Shown here: piece by piece, positions 16,363 through 22,756 of the stretch
How the letters are laid out: every line of letters starts with the position of its first letter
Numbering within the stretch: the stretch's first letter is position 1
Assembly: GCA_905233465.1 (NCBI GenBank)
Contig: CAJOEI010000004.1
Coordinates: 1-64,000 of the forward strand
Length of the DNA: 64,000 nucleotides
Direction of reading: 5' to 3'
Source: an uncultured Bacteroidaceae bacterium
Lineage (GTDB): Bacteria > Bacteroidota > Bacteroidia > Bacteroidales > Bacteroidaceae
Program-made: the position numbers and the translations under genes
Notes under the pieces: model-generated
Database searches by the model: none
Seen by the model: only the letters and a program-made list of their open reading frames with translations
Told to the model about the DNA's origin: nothing

Positions 16363-16480
16363 ACATTGAACATTGTGCATTGAGCATTGAGCATTGAACA
16401 TTGCGAATTGTGAATTATGAATTGTGAATTGTTTTTCACTTTTCATTGTCCATTGTCCATTCTCAATTCTCCATTCTTTA
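16363..16480. repeat. Heptanucleotide-period repeat tract
   Basis: GAACATT GAACATT GTGCATT GAGCATT GAGCATT GAACATT GCGAATT GTGAATT ATGAATT GTGAATT, followed by CATTGTC CATTGTC CATTCTC AATTCTC CATTCTT. Confidence 0.9.
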
Positions 16481-16672
16481 CATTTCCCCCTCCATACTCC
16501 CCTCCATACTCCCCTCCCTAACAGGGGAGGGGTCGGGGGTGGGGCCGGTGGGGGCGCCTGCATTCAATGCCGCAAAAGGTGCGAACTGCGCTGCACGGCT
16601 CCACATCGGCATCTGTGGATGACGTGTTGACACATGATGTGGCAGATTTATGATATCTTCGTATTTTTCCAT
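16478..16672 (-). pseudogene. Truncated YolD-like protein associated with Y-family polymerase
   Basis: MEKYEDIINLPHHVSTRHPQMPMWSRAAQFAPFAAL resembles YolD-like N-termini; the frame then runs into GC-rich repeat sequence (PTGPTPDPSPVREGSMEGSMEGEM). Confidence 0.65.
16481..16552. repeat. GC-rich C-run/G-run inverted repeat
   Basis: ...actcccctccctaacaggggaggggtcgggggtggggcc...; similar elements at 16852-16890, 27957-27993, 41624-41691. Confidence 0.85.
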
Positions 16673-16677
16673 GAGAC

Positions 16678-16690
16678 GCGGCTACGCCGC
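16678..16690. repeat. Short palindrome with trinucleotide loop GCGGC-TAC-GCCGC
   Basis: Read directly; one of a series in the window. Confidence 0.8.
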
Positions 16691-16699
16691 AGTTTAATG

Positions 16700-16790
16700 T
16701 TTATGGTTTAAAGTTTAAAGAAAATTGTAAATTTGCTAAATCGTAAATAGATTGTAAATCGTAAATCGTCAAATTGTAAATTAAATTAGA
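16700..16790. repeat. AT-rich heptad-like repeat tract (tttaaag / tcgtaaa units)
   Basis: gtttaaagtttaaag...tcgtaaatagattgtaaatcgtaaatcgtcaaattgtaaatt. Confidence 0.75.
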
Positions 16791-16851
16791 TTCTCATCTT
16801 TCCGCTCGGCCCAATGGGACGCTTTCCTTAGAAAGAACTTTCTACTTTCAA

Positions 16852-16890
16852 CTCTCCCCTCCCTTGGGGAGGGGCCGGGGGTGGGCCCCC
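16852..16890. repeat. GC-rich C-run/G-run inverted repeat
   Basis: ctctcccctcccttggggaggggccgggggtgggcccc. Confidence 0.85.
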
Positions 16891-16891
16891 T

Positions 16892-18391
16892 TTACGCCCT
16901 ATGTCCCCCTATCTGAGCATTACGCTCTTTGGCAGTAGCACCCTCCTCATAGCTCATTGCTTTGAGGAGGGCGTTTTTTCCGAAGCGTCGTCGGATAGAC
17001 AGCTGAGCCTCCTGCATACGGCGTTCCTTCTCCAGTGCCGCCTTTTCCTTGGCCTTCTGCTTTTGTTGTGCTTCGTAGTCTGTGAAGAGGTCCAGCTGCC
17101 GTGGAACCACTCGCTCGGCACATGCTGATTCGGGCACAACGTGGTTAACTGCGATGTTCAACCGCCGTATCAGCAGGTCCGGGTTCACGATGCGGTGAAA
17201 GAGTTCGCTGGCCGCACCCATAATCTGCCTTGACGACGACGTCTGACGCGGGAAGTTAAATGTGCCATGAGCGTGCTTCGGCACAGGCTTACCGTAGTAG
17301 TTGGTAGTAATCTCGCCGTGGTATTTGGCCCGTATCTCCGGCCGCGTCAGGCATTCGACATCATAGCTCACCGTCATCACCATCTGGTCGGTCACCAACC
17401 GCTTAGACACCAGCTTGAGCGCCATAGCTTCGGCCATCTCCTGTATCACCACGAGAGCTTTCTTGAAGACGTATGGCTCCTGCAGTACCTGGCCGCTACT
17501 CAGCGAGTTGGTCTCAGGCCTGTAGGCCTTCACGGCAGCCATAGTACACGGTTCCCAACCCCAGGCGTGGTCTATCAGCAGCTCCGCATTCACACCAAAG
17601 AGCCGATATAGCAACTCCTCATTTTGCAAGGACAAACGCGCCAACTTGCCCATAGTGTCGATACCATACACAGCCAGTTTGCTCGCTATGCCATTGCCTA
17701 CACGCCAGAACTTCGTCAGCGGACGATAGTCCCACAGCTCGCGACGATAACTCATCTCATCAAGTTCGGCAATGCGCACTCCGTCCTTGTCGGCTGGCAT
17801 CTTTTTGGCAACGATATCCATTGCCACCTTGCAGAGATACATGTTCGTGCCGATGCCCGCCGTGGCCGTGATGCCCGTCTGCGACAGCACGTCGCGAATC
17901 ATCCTCATTGTCAGCTCGTGAGCCGTCAGCCCGTATAACCCGAGATAGTCAGTCACATCCATAAACACCTCATCGACGCTATAGACATGAATGTCCTCCG
18001 GCGCAACGTATTTCAGGTATATCTCATAGATCTTTGAACTCATCTCAATATAGCGTGCCATCCTGGGCCTGGCTGTGATGTAGTCCACAGCCCAGTCCGG
18101 ATGCTGCTTCAGTTCCGTGTCAGATGTAGAGCGGCCCGTCAGCCTGTGCCCAGGTGCGCGCCCTTGACGCTCATTGTTCACCTCACGCACCCTCTGCACC
18201 ACCTCAAACAGCCTGGCACGGCCACCTATGCCGTAGGCCTTCAGCGGAGGCGACACCGCCAGGCATATCGTCTTCTCTGTGCGACTCACGTCAGCCACCA
18301 CGAGATTTGTGGACAAAGGGTCCAGCCCCATGTCCACACACTCCACCGAAGCATAAAACGACTTCAAGTCAATGGCTATATACGTGCGCAT
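16892..18391 (-). CDS. Y-family DNA polymerase (UmuC/DinB-type)
   Basis: MRTYIAIDLKSFYASVECVDMGLDPLSTNLVVADVSRTEKTICLAVSPPLKAYGI...; YSVDEVFMDVTDYL catalytic motif; TATAGIGTNMYLCKVAMD. Confidence 0.95.
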   Translation of the reverse strand: MRTYIAIDLKSFYASVECVDMGLDPLSTNLVVADVSRTEKTICLAVSPPLKAYGIGGRARLFEVVQRVREVNNERQGRAPGHRLTGRSTSDTELKQHPDWAVDYITARPRMARYIEMSSKIYEIYLKYVAPEDIHVYSVDEVFMDVTDYLGLYGLTAHELTMRMIRDVLSQTGITATAGIGTNMYLCKVAMDIVAKKMPADKDGVRIAELDEMSYRRELWDYRPLTKFWRVGNGIASKLAVYGIDTMGKLARLSLQNEELLYRLFGVNAELLIDHAWGWEPCTMAAVKAYRPETNSLSSGQVLQEPYVFKKALVVIQEMAEAMALKLVSKRLVTDQMVMTVSYDVECLTRPEIRAKYHGEITTNYYGKPVPKHAHGTFNFPRQTSSSRQIMGAASELFHRIVNPDLLIRRLNIAVNHVVPESACAERVVPRQLDLFTDYEAQQKQKAKEKAALEKERRMQEAQLSIRRRFGKNALLKAMSYEEGATAKERNAQIGGHRA

Positions 18392-18412
18392 ACCAGTGTG
18401 ACGTTACGACTG

Positions 18413-18420
18413 CAAATGTA
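18413..18420 (-). promoter_or_regulatory. Putative -7 element TACATTTG of the Y-family polymerase gene
   Basis: TAnnTTTG match ~22 nt before the start codon on the minus strand; no clear -33 element. Confidence 0.4.
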
Positions 18421-18437
18421 CACACTTTTTTTTATTT

Positions 18438-18680
18438 CCTAATTCTCAATTCTAAATTTTCAACTTTCAATTGGTTCGACAGGCTCACTATAAATCAATT
18501 CTCAACTTTCAATTCTCCGCTCGAACTCTGATCGCTTGCCTAAGCAAGAATTGTGAATTATGAATTATGAATTGTCAACTTTCAATTCTCAATTGTCCGC
18601 TCAACCGCTGGTCGCTTGCCTAAGCAAGAACTTTCAATTATCCATTGTCAATTGTCAATTATCAATTGGCCTTCGGCCTC
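18438..18680. repeat. Composite repeat region: heptad tracts, GGTTCGACAGGCTCACTATAAATC element, GGCC-TTC-GGCC palindrome
   Basis: e.g. CAATTAT CCATTGT CAATTGT CAATTAT CAATTGG at ~18640-18668; ggttcgacaggctcactataaatcaatt at 18473-18500. Confidence 0.85.
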
Positions 18681-18821
18681 TGGTCTCCAACTGCGCTTAA
18701 CACACTCATTTGCAGCGCTTTGCAAAACCGGCAAAAGGCCCGGGGGTTAGCGGTTGATGATCCAGGAGGTTTGCACTAAAACATCCGGGCCTTTCACGTA
18801 AAAGTTCCAGGATCATTTTCC

Positions 18822-18887
18822 GCCAACCTCCGGATGTTTTCATGCCAACTTCTGGATGTTGTAGTCCTAACCTCTGGATGTTTCTGC
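18822..18887. repeat. 22-bp degenerate tandem repeat, three units (possible fourth at 18800-18821)
   Basis: gccaacctccggatgttttcat / gccaacttctggatgttgtagt / cctaacctctggatgtttctgc. Confidence 0.75.
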
Positions 18888-18972
18888 GATACCAAGATTT
18901 ATATATGTAACTTTCTCGTGTCAGCAAGCCGGTGCGATGTCCAATTAGAGGCATTATTGTGGTGGGGGGTAT

Positions 18973-19017
18973 AGCACGACCCAGCTGCATCAACAGTAGA
19001 TGCAGCTGGGTCGTGCT
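18973..19017. terminator. Perfect 19-bp stem, 7-nt loop hairpin at the 3' end of the capsule operon (possible terminator, no clear T-tract)
   Basis: agcacgacccagctgcatc-aacagta-gatgcagctgggtcgtgct. Confidence 0.6.
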
Positions 19018-19041: not shown

Positions 19042-19530
19042 CTATGATGCGTTGGAGGTCTTATCGTCTATAAAATCCTCAATTGATTGGATTAGGGATA
19101 ATGATGCGCTGTTACCGATATGCTGGAGCGTTGTCTGATGCCCATTCAGCAGCATAGAGGTCAGTTCTTCTTCGTCCATTGCCACGTTGACCGCTCCCAT
19201 TTCCTTGAATTTCCGTGCCGTTGCCAATTGGTGTTCGTTGCGGTGCTCTCCTAAGGCGGCGATACGTGGGAAAACGATGATGGGCTTGTCCTGCTGTAGG
19301 GCTGATAGTATTGTACCCATTCCAGCGTGAGATATGATGAGACGTGCCTTGTCAAAGAGTGTGTTAAACTCGTCAGGGGCAAGGAAATCGACGGTCTTTA
19401 TGTTTTTAGGAGTGAAACCACATTGATAAACCTGCGCAACAACTTCCTCATTCAGTTGCGGCGCCAGTTCATCGATAATCTTGATGAGACGGTCAAATGG
19501 GAGCTGCGTGCCTATAGTGACAAAGATCAT
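19042..19530 (-). CDS. PssE/Alg13-like glycosyltransferase catalytic subunit
   Basis: MIFVTIGTQLPFDRLIKIIDEL...LIISHAGMGTILSALQQDKPIIVFPR, typical of the GT28 C-terminal/Alg13 family. Confidence 0.85.
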   Translation of the reverse strand: MIFVTIGTQLPFDRLIKIIDELAPQLNEEVVAQVYQCGFTPKNIKTVDFLAPDEFNTLFDKARLIISHAGMGTILSALQQDKPIIVFPRIAALGEHRNEHQLATARKFKEMGAVNVAMDEEELTSMLLNGHQTTLQHIGNSASLSLIQSIEDFIDDKTSNAS

Positions 19531-19572: not shown

Positions 19573-20031
19573 CTATATATTGTTCCCAAAGACATTGCCG
19601 GCATATTGTATCTTCTCCGTGGCAAGGTCTTTCCATTGGGTATAGGTGCGTGAAGCAAACTTTGATGCCATGCGTCCGCTTGCCGACAGATGTTCTGCAT
19701 TGGCGATGCTGTCAATCCAAATTGTTTTTCGTCCTAACAATTTCCCTGCCAGTAGAAAGACAAATCCAGGAGCAGCGCCAGTAGTTATAATGGCATCCGG
19801 GTTTTCTTGCCGTATCGTTTTCATAGCCTTGAAAAACGACGGTATCAGTTTCCATACATCCGTTCGGCTGAAATCGGATGTCTGAAAGAACTTCTGCCCC
19901 TCCACCATCGTGGCACATTTGGGATGGGTTGAGACATATACCATCTCACAGTGCTCCTCCATCGGCCGCGCTATCCTCAGCAACTGTATCCAGTGCCCGC
20001 CTATCGAGGCCACTGCAAGTACTTTTTTCAT
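19573..20031 (-). CDS. PssD/Alg14-like glycosyltransferase anchoring subunit
   Basis: MKKVLAVASIGGHWIQLLRIARPMEEHCEMVYVSTHP...ITTGAAPGFVFLLAGKLLGRKTIWIDSIA. Confidence 0.85.
   Translation of the reverse strand: MKKVLAVASIGGHWIQLLRIARPMEEHCEMVYVSTHPKCATMVEGQKFFQTSDFSRTDVWKLIPSFFKAMKTIRQENPDAIITTGAAPGFVFLLAGKLLGRKTIWIDSIANAEHLSASGRMASKFASRTYTQWKDLATEKIQYAGNVFGNNI
19964..20025. repeat. 62-bp direct repeat copy A (inside 5' end of intact pssD-like gene)
   Basis: ggccgcgctatcctcagcaactgtatccagtgcccgcctatcgaggccactgcaagtacttt; one mismatch with copy B at 21634-21695. Confidence 0.95.
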
Positions 20032-20043
20032 GATTAAAGAATA

Positions 20044-21468
20044 TTAAACGGCAAACAAATCGCCCATGGTTATCTCATTCTGAATGAGGTTGTAGTTGTT
20101 ATTGTGAGTAACACCATTAGTTGTCACCATTACAAGATGGGGGGTGCGTCTGTCCTTCGAATGTTCTTGATATGCGCCAAGTTTGTTTTGCAGGTCATTC
20201 GCATAGTCTTTGTCGATTGTGAAGACATAATCAGAGTGCTTCATCTCACAAAGATCAGTAAAGCCATCGGCCCGCTGAATCACCAAGTCAATCTGTGCCC
20301 CGCGTCTCTCATCCGTCCCACGGGCAAACCAGGAACACACGTTTGTCTGAACACCCGAAATACCAAGGGCATATTTTATCTGATGAATGTGCTGTAGGCA
20401 TATTCGCTCAAAGGCATGTCCCCTCCATGTGTTATGGGATGTCGAGGTGAAGGTGTTCGACCAATAACGTTCATCGTTAAAGGCATTTTTCTTAATGCAG
20501 AGATAATAGAACAGGGTGTAGTTGTCTATAAGCTGATACATGGCATTTGTCTCAGTAGTATCAGCAGAAGCAAAACGGCGGATAAATCCACATTCCTCCA
20601 GTTCTTCCAATATCGTAGAGAAAGTACCTCCATCGGAGAGTTTACTTGCCTTCAGTATTTCCTCTCTGGTCATCCCCGACTTTCTTCCATCACTCAAGCA
20701 CTCAATAACTTTAAGATAATTCTCCGGACGTTTGAAAAGGATGGCATAAAGAGCCTCAAACTCATCACGGAGTTGAGCTGTCTCTGTATAAAACAGTTGG
20801 TCAATATTCTGTGCCACACTCAAGCCCTTTTTGAGGAAACTCCAATAGTAAGGTATGCCACCAAGAATCATGTAGAGTTCCAGCACATCCTTTCTTCCAA
20901 GAGCAAGATTCGCACTCTTTGCAAAAAGTTCGCACTCACGGAGCGTAAAGGGAACAAGTTTAATTCGGTTGGTCAATCTCCCGCGAAGGCCACCTTTGTC
21001 CTTCAGTAGTTTCTTGCTAATCCACGAGGTGGCACTGCCGCACACGATGAGTACGATGTCTTTCTCACGACGTGCCGTAACCCATCCGTTCCAAAAGTTT
21101 TCCAACGCACCAATCAGGTTACCCTTAGGTGTGTCCATCCATGGAAGTTCATCAATAAACAAAACTTTCTTTCCAGCCGGGGCTTGATTAATTAGCACTT
21201 TCAGCAATTCAAAAGCCTCAATCCAGTTTTTGGGAATGGCGCACTTTATTCCTGCTGCCACCAAGGAGTTACGGAATGCCGTCAGCTGCTGACGAAGCGT
21301 TCCTTTTGAAATTCCTGTGTGTTGGAAACAGAACTGATAGTTGAAAGTCTCACGAATAAGATACGTTTTTCCTACACGTCGCCTGCCATAGACGGCACAA
21401 AACTGTGACTCCTCTTTTTCAAGAAGTCCTTGCAATTCCCGTTGTTCTTTTTCGCGTCCGATAATCAT
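20044..21468 (-). CDS. AAA ATPase (archaeal ATPase/DUF234-type fold)
   Basis: MIIGREKEQRELQGLLEKEESQFCAVYGRRRVGKTYLIRETF (Walker A), VLFIDELPWMDTPKGN (Walker B); C-terminal nuclease-like EIDLV-like segment GAQIDLVIQRADGFTDLCEMKHSDY. Confidence 0.9.
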   Translation of the reverse strand: MIIGREKEQRELQGLLEKEESQFCAVYGRRRVGKTYLIRETFNYQFCFQHTGISKGTLRQQLTAFRNSLVAAGIKCAIPKNWIEAFELLKVLINQAPAGKKVLFIDELPWMDTPKGNLIGALENFWNGWVTARREKDIVLIVCGSATSWISKKLLKDKGGLRGRLTNRIKLVPFTLRECELFAKSANLALGRKDVLELYMILGGIPYYWSFLKKGLSVAQNIDQLFYTETAQLRDEFEALYAILFKRPENYLKVIECLSDGRKSGMTREEILKASKLSDGGTFSTILEELEECGFIRRFASADTTETNAMYQLIDNYTLFYYLCIKKNAFNDERYWSNTFTSTSHNTWRGHAFERICLQHIHQIKYALGISGVQTNVCSWFARGTDERRGAQIDLVIQRADGFTDLCEMKHSDYVFTIDKDYANDLQNKLGAYQEHSKDRRTPHLVMVTTNGVTHNNNYNLIQNEITMGDLFAV

Positions 21469-21500
21469 AGATGCACACTTGCTATATTACAAATCCGCTG

Positions 21501-21508
21501 CAAATATA
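21501..21508 (-). promoter_or_regulatory. Putative -7 element TATATTTG upstream of the ATPase
   Basis: TAnnTTTG match ~33 nt upstream of the ATG, inside the inserted segment. Confidence 0.5.
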
Positions 21509-21633
21509 TTGAAAATATTCTTATAACTAGCGGAAATGTTCCTTTTTCTTTCGTTTTTCGCTAAAAATAACGTTTTTTAATCTGTTCATCTATGTTATCA
21601 GATCTATAAAAAGCATATTTCACATTTGAGACA

Positions 21634-21695
21634 GGCCGCGCTATCCTCAGCAACTGTATCCAGTGCCCGCCTATCGAGGCAACTGCAAGTACTTT
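21634..21695. repeat. 62-bp direct repeat copy B (truncated 5' end of pssD-like gene)
   Basis: ggccgcgctatcctcagcaactgtatccagtgcccgcctatcgaggcaactgcaagtacttt; encodes MKGKVLAVASIGGHWIQLLRIARP before diverging. Confidence 0.95.
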
Positions 21696-21700
21696 CCCTT

Positions 21701-22756
21701 TCATTCCTCTATTAATCCTATATTTTTCAGATAATCTGCCGACAGGGCATTCTTTGCTTCATATTTTGTTGCCTCAGCCCGGGCGTTGCGTGCCATCGCT
21801 GGTAGGGCGACTTGTCCTGAGATGCATTTCTCCATAACGTTCATCAATGCCTCCACGTTATGGACAGGATAGATGATGCCAAGCTTCCCGTCGGTGATGG
21901 CCTCGGCATTGTGTGCCCAGTCTGAAGCCAGCACCGGCAAAGCGGCAATGAATGCATCGATGAATACGCCAGCGAACCCCTCGGAAGGGTGGAATGTCGG
22001 GAAGAGCATGGCGTGATATGAGGCCAGGGTGTCGTAACCCTCATTGGTGCGAAGGTCCAGCAGACCGTGCCAACTTACATTTTCCAGTAAACAAACTTCC
22101 TTCAGGAATTGTTCGCGGTAGTCAGCATCTATCTTTCCAAAAAAGTCGACGGAGAAACGAGACTGAAGACCTTTAGAATTGAGGCGCCGAACAGCTTCTA
22201 TGATGTAATCGCAGCCCTTGCTTGGCATGATGCGGCTGAGGAACACAAAACGGATGGTCTCGCTCTCAGCCCTCGATGCCAGAGCCTTCTCCATATCGGG
22301 ATAATAGGGAATGGGTTTGAAGTTAGAGACGAAGCGGGCATTGGTCACGCCAGCCTCTTTCAACTCGTCAATCATACTATGGCATTGCACGAGATTGTAT
22401 TTGATGTAATTGAACACATCAGCCCTAAATTTGCCGTCTCTGACCTGTTTGGCAAAAGCACCGCCAATAACCCAGTAGATGATGTCGCGCCTGACATGCA
22501 GACCCTTGAACAGCCGCAGAATGGAATAGACATTCTTTGCCGATGTTGAGAAGATAATGGTGGCCTTGGGCTTGGCAAGCAATGCCCACAAAGCTTGAAC
22601 ATACACCCACGGATGGCGACGTTTCTCAAAGAAGTCCAAGACCGTCACCTTGCAGTACTTTTTCAGTTCCGCAATGATGTATTGGTTCTTGGTCGTCTCG
22701 CCATCAACAGGTGCTTTCCCCAGGTTCACCCAGCCGACAAAAATGATGCTCTTCAT
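21701..22756 (-). CDS. Glycosyltransferase (GT4/GT1-type)
   Basis: MKSIIFVGWVNLGKAPVDGETTKNQYIIAELKKY...; PTFHPSEGFAGVFIDAFIAALPVLASDWAHNAE. Confidence 0.9.
   Translation of the reverse strand: MKSIIFVGWVNLGKAPVDGETTKNQYIIAELKKYCKVTVLDFFEKRRHPWVYVQALWALLAKPKATIIFSTSAKNVYSILRLFKGLHVRRDIIYWVIGGAFAKQVRDGKFRADVFNYIKYNLVQCHSMIDELKEAGVTNARFVSNFKPIPYYPDMEKALASRAESETIRFVFLSRIMPSKGCDYIIEAVRRLNSKGLQSRFSVDFFGKIDADYREQFLKEVCLLENVSWHGLLDLRTNEGYDTLASYHAMLFPTFHPSEGFAGVFIDAFIAALPVLASDWAHNAEAITDGKLGIIYPVHNVEALMNVMEKCISGQVALPAMARNARAEATKYEAKNALSADYLKNIGLIEE

What the first reader, a model, noticed from the sequence alone, without database searches (positions are those of the whole stretch)
19964..21704. AAA-ATPase cassette inserted in pssD with a 62-bp duplication that rebuilds the gene
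Copies of 62 bp with one mismatch lie at 19964-20025 and 21634-21695, flanking 1608 bp that contains one ATPase ORF and its own -7 element. Copy B is a truncated pssD start (MKGKVLAVASIGGHWIQLLRIARP...) still ATGA-coupled to the upstream glycosyltransferase, which marks the ancestral junction. Copy A belongs to the intact pssD downstream. Insertion with gene reconstitution resembles attachment-site logic of integrative elements, but no integrase is present. The ATPase may be a minimal mobile or selfish/defence cargo.
Basis: partly seen in the sequence, partly recalled or inferred. Interest (0 to 1): 0.72.

Follow-up and report, generated by a model that had tools for sequence, protein, structure and literature searches.

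The report
Self-regulated ATPase-nuclease gene inserted before pssD
A single candidate virus-defence gene has been added to a sugar-coat gene cluster in a rumen-type gut bacterium, leaving a broken scrap of the neighbouring gene behind; it got there most probably by ordinary DNA recombination rather than as a self-moving element, and the new part is that genes of this family each carry their own tailor-made on/off switch.

Summary
A 62-bp direct repeat (61/62) brackets one ATPase gene; with a 3-bp indel it runs back to the pssD start codon. Relatives G114 (GT1-pssD) and G033 (pssD-pssE) have a single pssD start and no ATPase, so this is an insertion and copy B marks the old junction.

The gene is a full-length member of PADLOC candidate PDC-S27: AAA ATPase, winged helix, PD-(D/E)XK nuclease with invariant D394, E408, K410 (AlphaFold pLDDT 92).

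About 22% of 76 related copies have flanking repeats (1% of ordinary genes, about 6% of other accessory genes). The repeats differ in sequence, span about 18-580 bp, are often only 80-95% identical, and in six loci end at a neighbour gene's start or stop codon. At L087 the copies are alleles of different lineages; at L061 the intact gene is mosaic. These look like recombination scars, not target-site duplications. Conserved termini, integrase and a common att site are absent. In the window locus itself a target duplication cannot be excluded.

New: PDC-S27 genes are preceded by a copy-specific palindrome over the promoter (60/72 loci, several phyla; shuffled 2/72). Its sequence tracks the winged helix, not the nuclease, implying self-regulation.

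The parts
20044..21468 (-). ATPase-nuclease gene, 474 aa, PDC-S27 family (ATPase_2 PF01637, winged helix about 246-315, PD-(D/E)XK about 343-474)
21634..21704 (-). Copy B: truncated pssD start (71 bp from ATG), overlapping the GT1 stop; ancestral GT1-pssD junction
19964..20031 (-). Copy A: start of the intact pssD (68 bp from ATG)
19573..20031 (-). pssD-like gene, intact (Alg14-like, PF08660)
19042..19530 (-). pssE-like gene (Glyco_tran_28_C, PF04101)
21701..22756 (-). GT1, group 1 glycosyltransferase upstream of the insertion; 93% identical to G114
21555..21562 (-). Operator half-site 1 (AGCGAAAA; degenerate relative to CAGCGGAAA of close copies)
21527..21536 (-). Operator half-site 2 (TTTCCGCTAG)
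21501..21508 (-). -7 promoter element TATATTTG (TAnnTTTG)
21494..21500 (-). Third half-site CAGCGGA directly after the -7 element
21563..21633 (-). Insert left part between copy B and the operator; not shared with other copies, origin unknown

Best explanation
A one-gene accessory unit (operator-promoter plus a PDC-S27 ATPase-winged helix-nuclease gene) was brought into a capsule-type locus on a piece of donor DNA that also carried the start of pssD. Homologous recombination in that shared pssD piece, combined with a non-homologous join at the other end (single crossover of a circularised fragment, or homology-facilitated illegitimate recombination), left an intact pssD next to the ATPase and a truncated pssD start on the far side. 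Shown: insertion, partial duplication starting at the pssD start codon, family-wide repeats that differ in length and sequence, allelic or mosaic copies at two other loci, no common termini. Inferred: the one-sided recombination route in this locus and the donor arrangement ATPase-pssD. Function inferred: the protein represses its own promoter through its winged helix and the palindrome, and acts as an ATP-driven nuclease, plausibly against invading DNA.
For: Empty sites G114 and G033 with a single pssD start. The repeat begins exactly at the pssD ATG once a 3-bp indel is allowed. Repeat edge within 0-9 nt of a neighbour's start or stop codon also in L061, L087, L015, L326 and, around an unrelated AlbA_2 gene, L197. 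Copies 84-98% identical there. L087: the fragment shares alleles with G026/G038/G040, the intact copy with G048/G049. L061: copies about 96% identical over roughly 420 bp, then about 70%; the intact gene turns G076-like while the fragment stays G125-like. Integration of a recircularised molecule by single crossover is an observed route to partial target-gene duplications of 109-950 bp in E. coli (PMC3240628). No conserved ends outside promoter palindrome and ORF. Family. Operator.
Against: No genome with a donor-like ATPase-pssD arrangement was found. In the window the copies are 98% identical and closer to each other than to any relative, which a recent target duplication would also give. L016 and L084 repeats are 52 and 54 bp and 100% identical. 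At L061 the simplest one-step version predicts divergence at the opposite end of the repeat, so further events are needed there. Repeats are more frequent around this family (17/76) than around three other accessory families (5/81), which recombination alone does not explain unless these genes arrived more recently.
Confidence: 0.58

Rival explanations
1. The ATPase gene is a minimal self-mobile element; its nuclease cuts the target with widely spaced nicks and gap filling leaves a long, variable target-site duplication.
For: Direct repeats flank 17 of 76 copies against 2 of 163 ordinary genes; inserts hold just the gene plus roughly 100-250 bp upstream and 0-110 bp downstream in most repeat-bearing loci; nuclease residues invariant; L016 and L084 repeats identical.
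Against: No shared ends even among copies 66-87% identical; repeat copies mostly 80-95% identical; alleles of different lineages at L087; edges at gene boundaries; similar repeats around unrelated AlbA_2 and AAA-ATPase_like genes; deletion derivatives L230 and L232 carry no flanking repeat.
Confidence: 0.13
2. Homing-like spread: the nuclease breaks an allele lacking the ATPase and the break is repaired from an allele carrying it, sometimes with one faulty side, which leaves the partial gene duplication.
For: Invariant PD-(D/E)XK residues in all 69 proteins; allelic, mosaic repeat copies; excess of repeats at this family.
Against: Copies sit at unrelated genes with no visible common recognition site; no cleavage data; passive recombination explains the same scars.
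Confidence: 0.08
3. Shuffling between variants of the capsule locus: in another strain the ATPase is a resident neighbour of pssD and the present order is a join of two locus variants.
For: Gene order differs among G000, G033 and G114; GT1 is closest to G114 but pssD and pssE to G033.
Against: No relative has the ATPase beside pssD; most other copies lie outside capsule loci.
Confidence: 0.16
4. Carried in by a phage, plasmid or integrative element that was later lost.
For: Distant relatives (below 60% identity) on 118 plasmid and 7 phage records.
Against: No relative found in IMG/VR at the depth of the scan; no integrase or phage gene beside it in the window.
Confidence: 0.05

Closest known systems
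PDC-S27, PADLOC phage-defence candidate (single gene)
   Same: Full-length match, E 4.8e-190; ATPase fused to PD-(D/E)XK, as described in PMC12988326; abundant in rumen genomes (PMC13356809)
   Different: A self-specific promoter palindrome and partial-gene repeats are not mentioned in the passages read; antiviral activity is untested here and reported as pending for most PDCs
Archaeal AAA ATPases PAB2304 (2qen) and SSO1545 (2fna)
   Same: Best fold matches (E 7e-12 and 4e-10)
   Different: 16-19% identity over the aligned part; 350-residue proteins against 474, so the nuclease domain is not covered as a whole
Homology-facilitated illegitimate recombination and single-crossover integration of recircularised DNA (PMC3240628)
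   Same: Partial duplication of the target gene beside the insert
   Different: There studied with a lacZ plasmid in E. coli; here inferred from sequence scars only
Integrative elements that rebuild a gene end at att sites
   Same: Intact gene on one side, gene-end remnant on the other
   Different: No integrase, no common att; every copy lies at a different gene

Membership tests
PDC-S27 | Full-length match to the PADLOC model | tested here: met
   PDLC04984 E 4.8e-190, residues 2-472; 69 of 69 family proteins match
PDC-S27 | ATPase fused to PD-(D/E)XK nuclease | tested here: met
   Walker A GRRRVGKT, Walker B FIDELPW, invariant D394/E408/K410; model pLDDT 92, pTM 0.89
PDC-S27 | Antiviral activity | not testable with these tools
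   needs phage challenge
Transposon / insertion sequence | Conserved element ends | tested here: not met
   Conservation among the five closest copies stops at the promoter palindrome and at the stop codon
Transposon / insertion sequence | Target duplication of set length, identical at birth | tested here: not met
   Lengths about 18-580 bp, identity mostly 80-98%, allelic copies at L087
Integrative element with att site | Integrase and common att sequence | tested here: not met
   Single-gene insert; repeats unrelated between loci
One-sided homologous recombination scar | Partial duplication of a neighbour gene starting at its boundary | tested here: met
   Window, L061, L087, L015, L326, L197
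One-sided homologous recombination scar | Repeat copies are different alleles, or the intact gene is a mosaic | tested here: inconclusive
   Seen at L087 and L061; not resolvable in the window for want of close strains
One-sided homologous recombination scar | A donor genome with ATPase next to the same gene | tested here: not met
   No pssD, pssE or GT1 beside the ATPase in the 79 named loci; same-species strains were not available, so the absence is weak evidence
Homing endonuclease gene | Insertion inside its own recognition site | tested here: inconclusive
   No common target seen among repeats; cleavage not testable
Autoregulated gene with self-operator | Palindrome over the promoter that co-varies with the DNA-binding domain | tested here: met
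   72% against 5.5% of control genes, 60/72 against 2/72 shuffled; partial r 0.233, p 0.001 for the winged helix and -0.004 for the nuclease
Autoregulated gene with self-operator | Direct binding and repression | not testable with these tools
   needs gel shift and reporter assay

The most novel reading that the evidence does not exclude
PDC-S27 genes are self-propagating: the winged helix recognises a private operator, the nuclease breaks alleles that lack the gene, and repair from the occupied allele copies it in, leaving gene-end duplications; the copy-specific operators keep co-resident copies from repressing each other.
Probability: 0.07. Interest if true: 0.85.

Novelty: new member of a known kind. 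Interest (0 to 1): 0.42.

Why it matters
PDC-S27 is among the commonest defence candidates in rumen bacteria and archaea, yet its function is untested. A private operator that tracks the winged helix gives a direct, cheap handle: it predicts the binding site of each copy and says that expression is kept low until the protein is released or engaged. The partial gene repeats show how such single genes enter capsule and other loci without any integrase, and warn against reading every gene-rebuilding repeat as an attachment site.

Tried and rejected
Transposon with target duplication: no shared ends, divergent and allelic copies. Promoter palindrome as a mobile end or dispersed repeat: for the L067 copy the arm occurs in its genome only on the two sides of that gene, and the window half-site occurs once in its genome. 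In five copies the second palindrome downstream is read as an operator relic of a lost neighbour copy, not tested. Deletion derivatives as MITE-like elements: L230, L231, L232, L234, L235 have no flanking repeats, so they look like decayed genes. The short stretch after copy B as further eroded pssD: suggestive only (score 8.5, above the 99% null of 8.0). The same stretch as the 3' end of a donor gene: no convincing relative. RNA families: none in the window. A DUF4143 locus (L160) repeat is a minisatellite and was discounted.

Full report
OBSERVATION. The repeat is real and far above chance. The element between the copies is one 474-aa ORF with its own promoter. Allowing one 3-bp indel (ATGAAAGGGAAAGTA against ATGAAAAAAGTA) both copies begin at the pssD start codon.

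EMPTY SITES. In G114 the GT1 homologue (93% aa) runs straight into pssD; in G033 pssD follows CotH and leads into pssE. Each has one pssD start and no ATPase. G047 and G110 also carry pssD-pssE. So the ATPase is an insertion and copy B is the old junction. GT1 is closest to G114, pssD and pssE to G033, so this locus recombines anyway.

THE PROTEIN. It matches ATPase_2 and, over its whole length, PADLOC PDC-S27; all 69 family members do. Invariant positions include Walker A and B and D394, E408, K410 of a PD-(D/E)XK core. The model (pLDDT 92, pTM 0.89) shows ATPase, winged helix at about 246-315 and an alpha-beta nuclease domain; best fold matches are archaeal ATPases PAB2304 and SSO1545. [quoted passage not shown] PMC13356809 counts it among common rumen systems. 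The two papers differ on whether the family arose in Archaea or Bacteria.

FAMILY. 76 of 139 genomes of the genus carry a match, up to nine per genome. Of 76 full-length copies with flanks, 17 have a direct repeat of score 18 or more within 400 bp on both sides, against 2 of 163 control genes (Fisher p 9e-8). Three other accessory families gave 1/28, 3/27 and 1/26 at the same threshold, some of them simple repeats. So repeats mark accessory insertions generally and are commoner here. Some repeats in the ATPase set are also simple sequence, tRNA-linked or the promoter palindrome itself, so 17 is an upper figure for true gene-fragment scars.

WHAT THE REPEATS ARE. They share no sequence between loci. 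In the window, L061, L087, L015, L326 and the AlbA_2 locus L197 an edge lies 0-9 nt from the start or stop codon of the intact neighbour; L309 and the second L061 repeat do not fit that rule. Selection for intact neighbours biases in the same direction, and I did not compute a formal probability. Copies in gene-end repeats are 84-98% identical. At L087 the fragment shares states with G026/G038/G040 where the intact copy shares them with G048/G049, and the spacer behind the intact copy resembles G049. At L061 the two copies are about 96% identical for roughly 420 bp and then about 70%; there the intact gene is G076-like and the fragment G125-like. A fresh target duplication would be identical; one aged to 10-15% divergence would be expected to leave the two copies nearest relatives, which is not so at L087. 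A simple one-step crossover does not explain the polarity at L061, so more than one event is likely.

MECHANISM. PMC3240628 reports that most recombinants recovered after conjugation of non-replicating DNA carried a 109-950 bp duplication of part of the target gene, explained by a single crossover of a circle that had lost part of the homologous segment. That matches the pattern here. It is an inference for the window, since no donor arrangement was found and no close strain is available.

NO ELEMENT ENDS. Among the five closest copies conservation covers about 100 bp upstream (palindrome and promoter) and stops at the stop codon. Internally deleted relics keep the palindrome and sometimes the last codons but have no repeats.

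OPERATOR. Nearly every copy has a palindrome just upstream of or over the promoter: score 9 or more in 72% against 5.5% of controls (p 4e-27), 60/72 in named genomes against 2/72 after shuffling, including Lachnospiraceae, Clostridiales and Fibrobacter loci. Spacer is mostly 13-20 nt. In the close subfamily there are three half-sites, CAGCGGAAA, TTTCCGCTG and CAGCGGA, the last directly after the -7 element; the window copy has one degenerate half-site. Between subfamilies the arms differ, and arm similarity follows winged-helix similarity beyond the rest of the protein (partial r 0.233, permutation p 0.001), weakly the ATPase domain (0.097, p 0.006) and not the nuclease (-0.004). The permutation does not fully remove relatedness, so the contrast between domains is the stronger part. 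AlbA_2 genes lack such palindromes (0/26); DUF4143 genes often have them (16/28).

VERDICT. Observation confirmed; mobile-element reading unlikely but not excluded; gene filed as PDC-S27; self-operator is the newest point and needs a binding test.

Noticed in passing
G051:C47:163246-166317 and G021:C8:4383-7603: Two PDC-S27 genes of different subfamilies lie in tandem on the same strand about 240-400 bp apart.
   Followed up: partly
L067 (G066:C2:1301-2915): A 60-bp palindrome occurs in that genome only on the two sides of one PDC-S27 gene; similar second palindromes follow the gene in L010, L012 and L103.
   Followed up: partly
L230 (G047), L232 (G075), L235 (G022), L231 (G105): Internally deleted PDC-S27 relics or a lone operator; the promoter palindrome outlives the gene.
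   Followed up: partly
DUF4143 loci L136-L165: DUF4143 ATPases also often have an upstream palindrome (16 of 28), suggesting the self-operator is shared with other ATPase-nuclease genes.
   Followed up: no
window 18973-19017: Near-perfect 22-bp inverted repeat with a 1-nt loop downstream of pssE, probably the operon terminator.
   Followed up: no
window 18770-18890: Several near-copies of CCAACTTCTGGATGTT in both orientations in the spacer downstream of pssE.
   Followed up: no
window 16365-18667: Stretches of degenerate ATTGTCAATT-type repeats in spacers, also seen in many genomes of the genus.
   Followed up: no
L197: An unrelated AlbA_2 (Schlafen-type) gene is flanked by a 70-bp repeat (98.6%) ending at the stop codon of the upstream gene, the same kind of scar.
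   Followed up: partly
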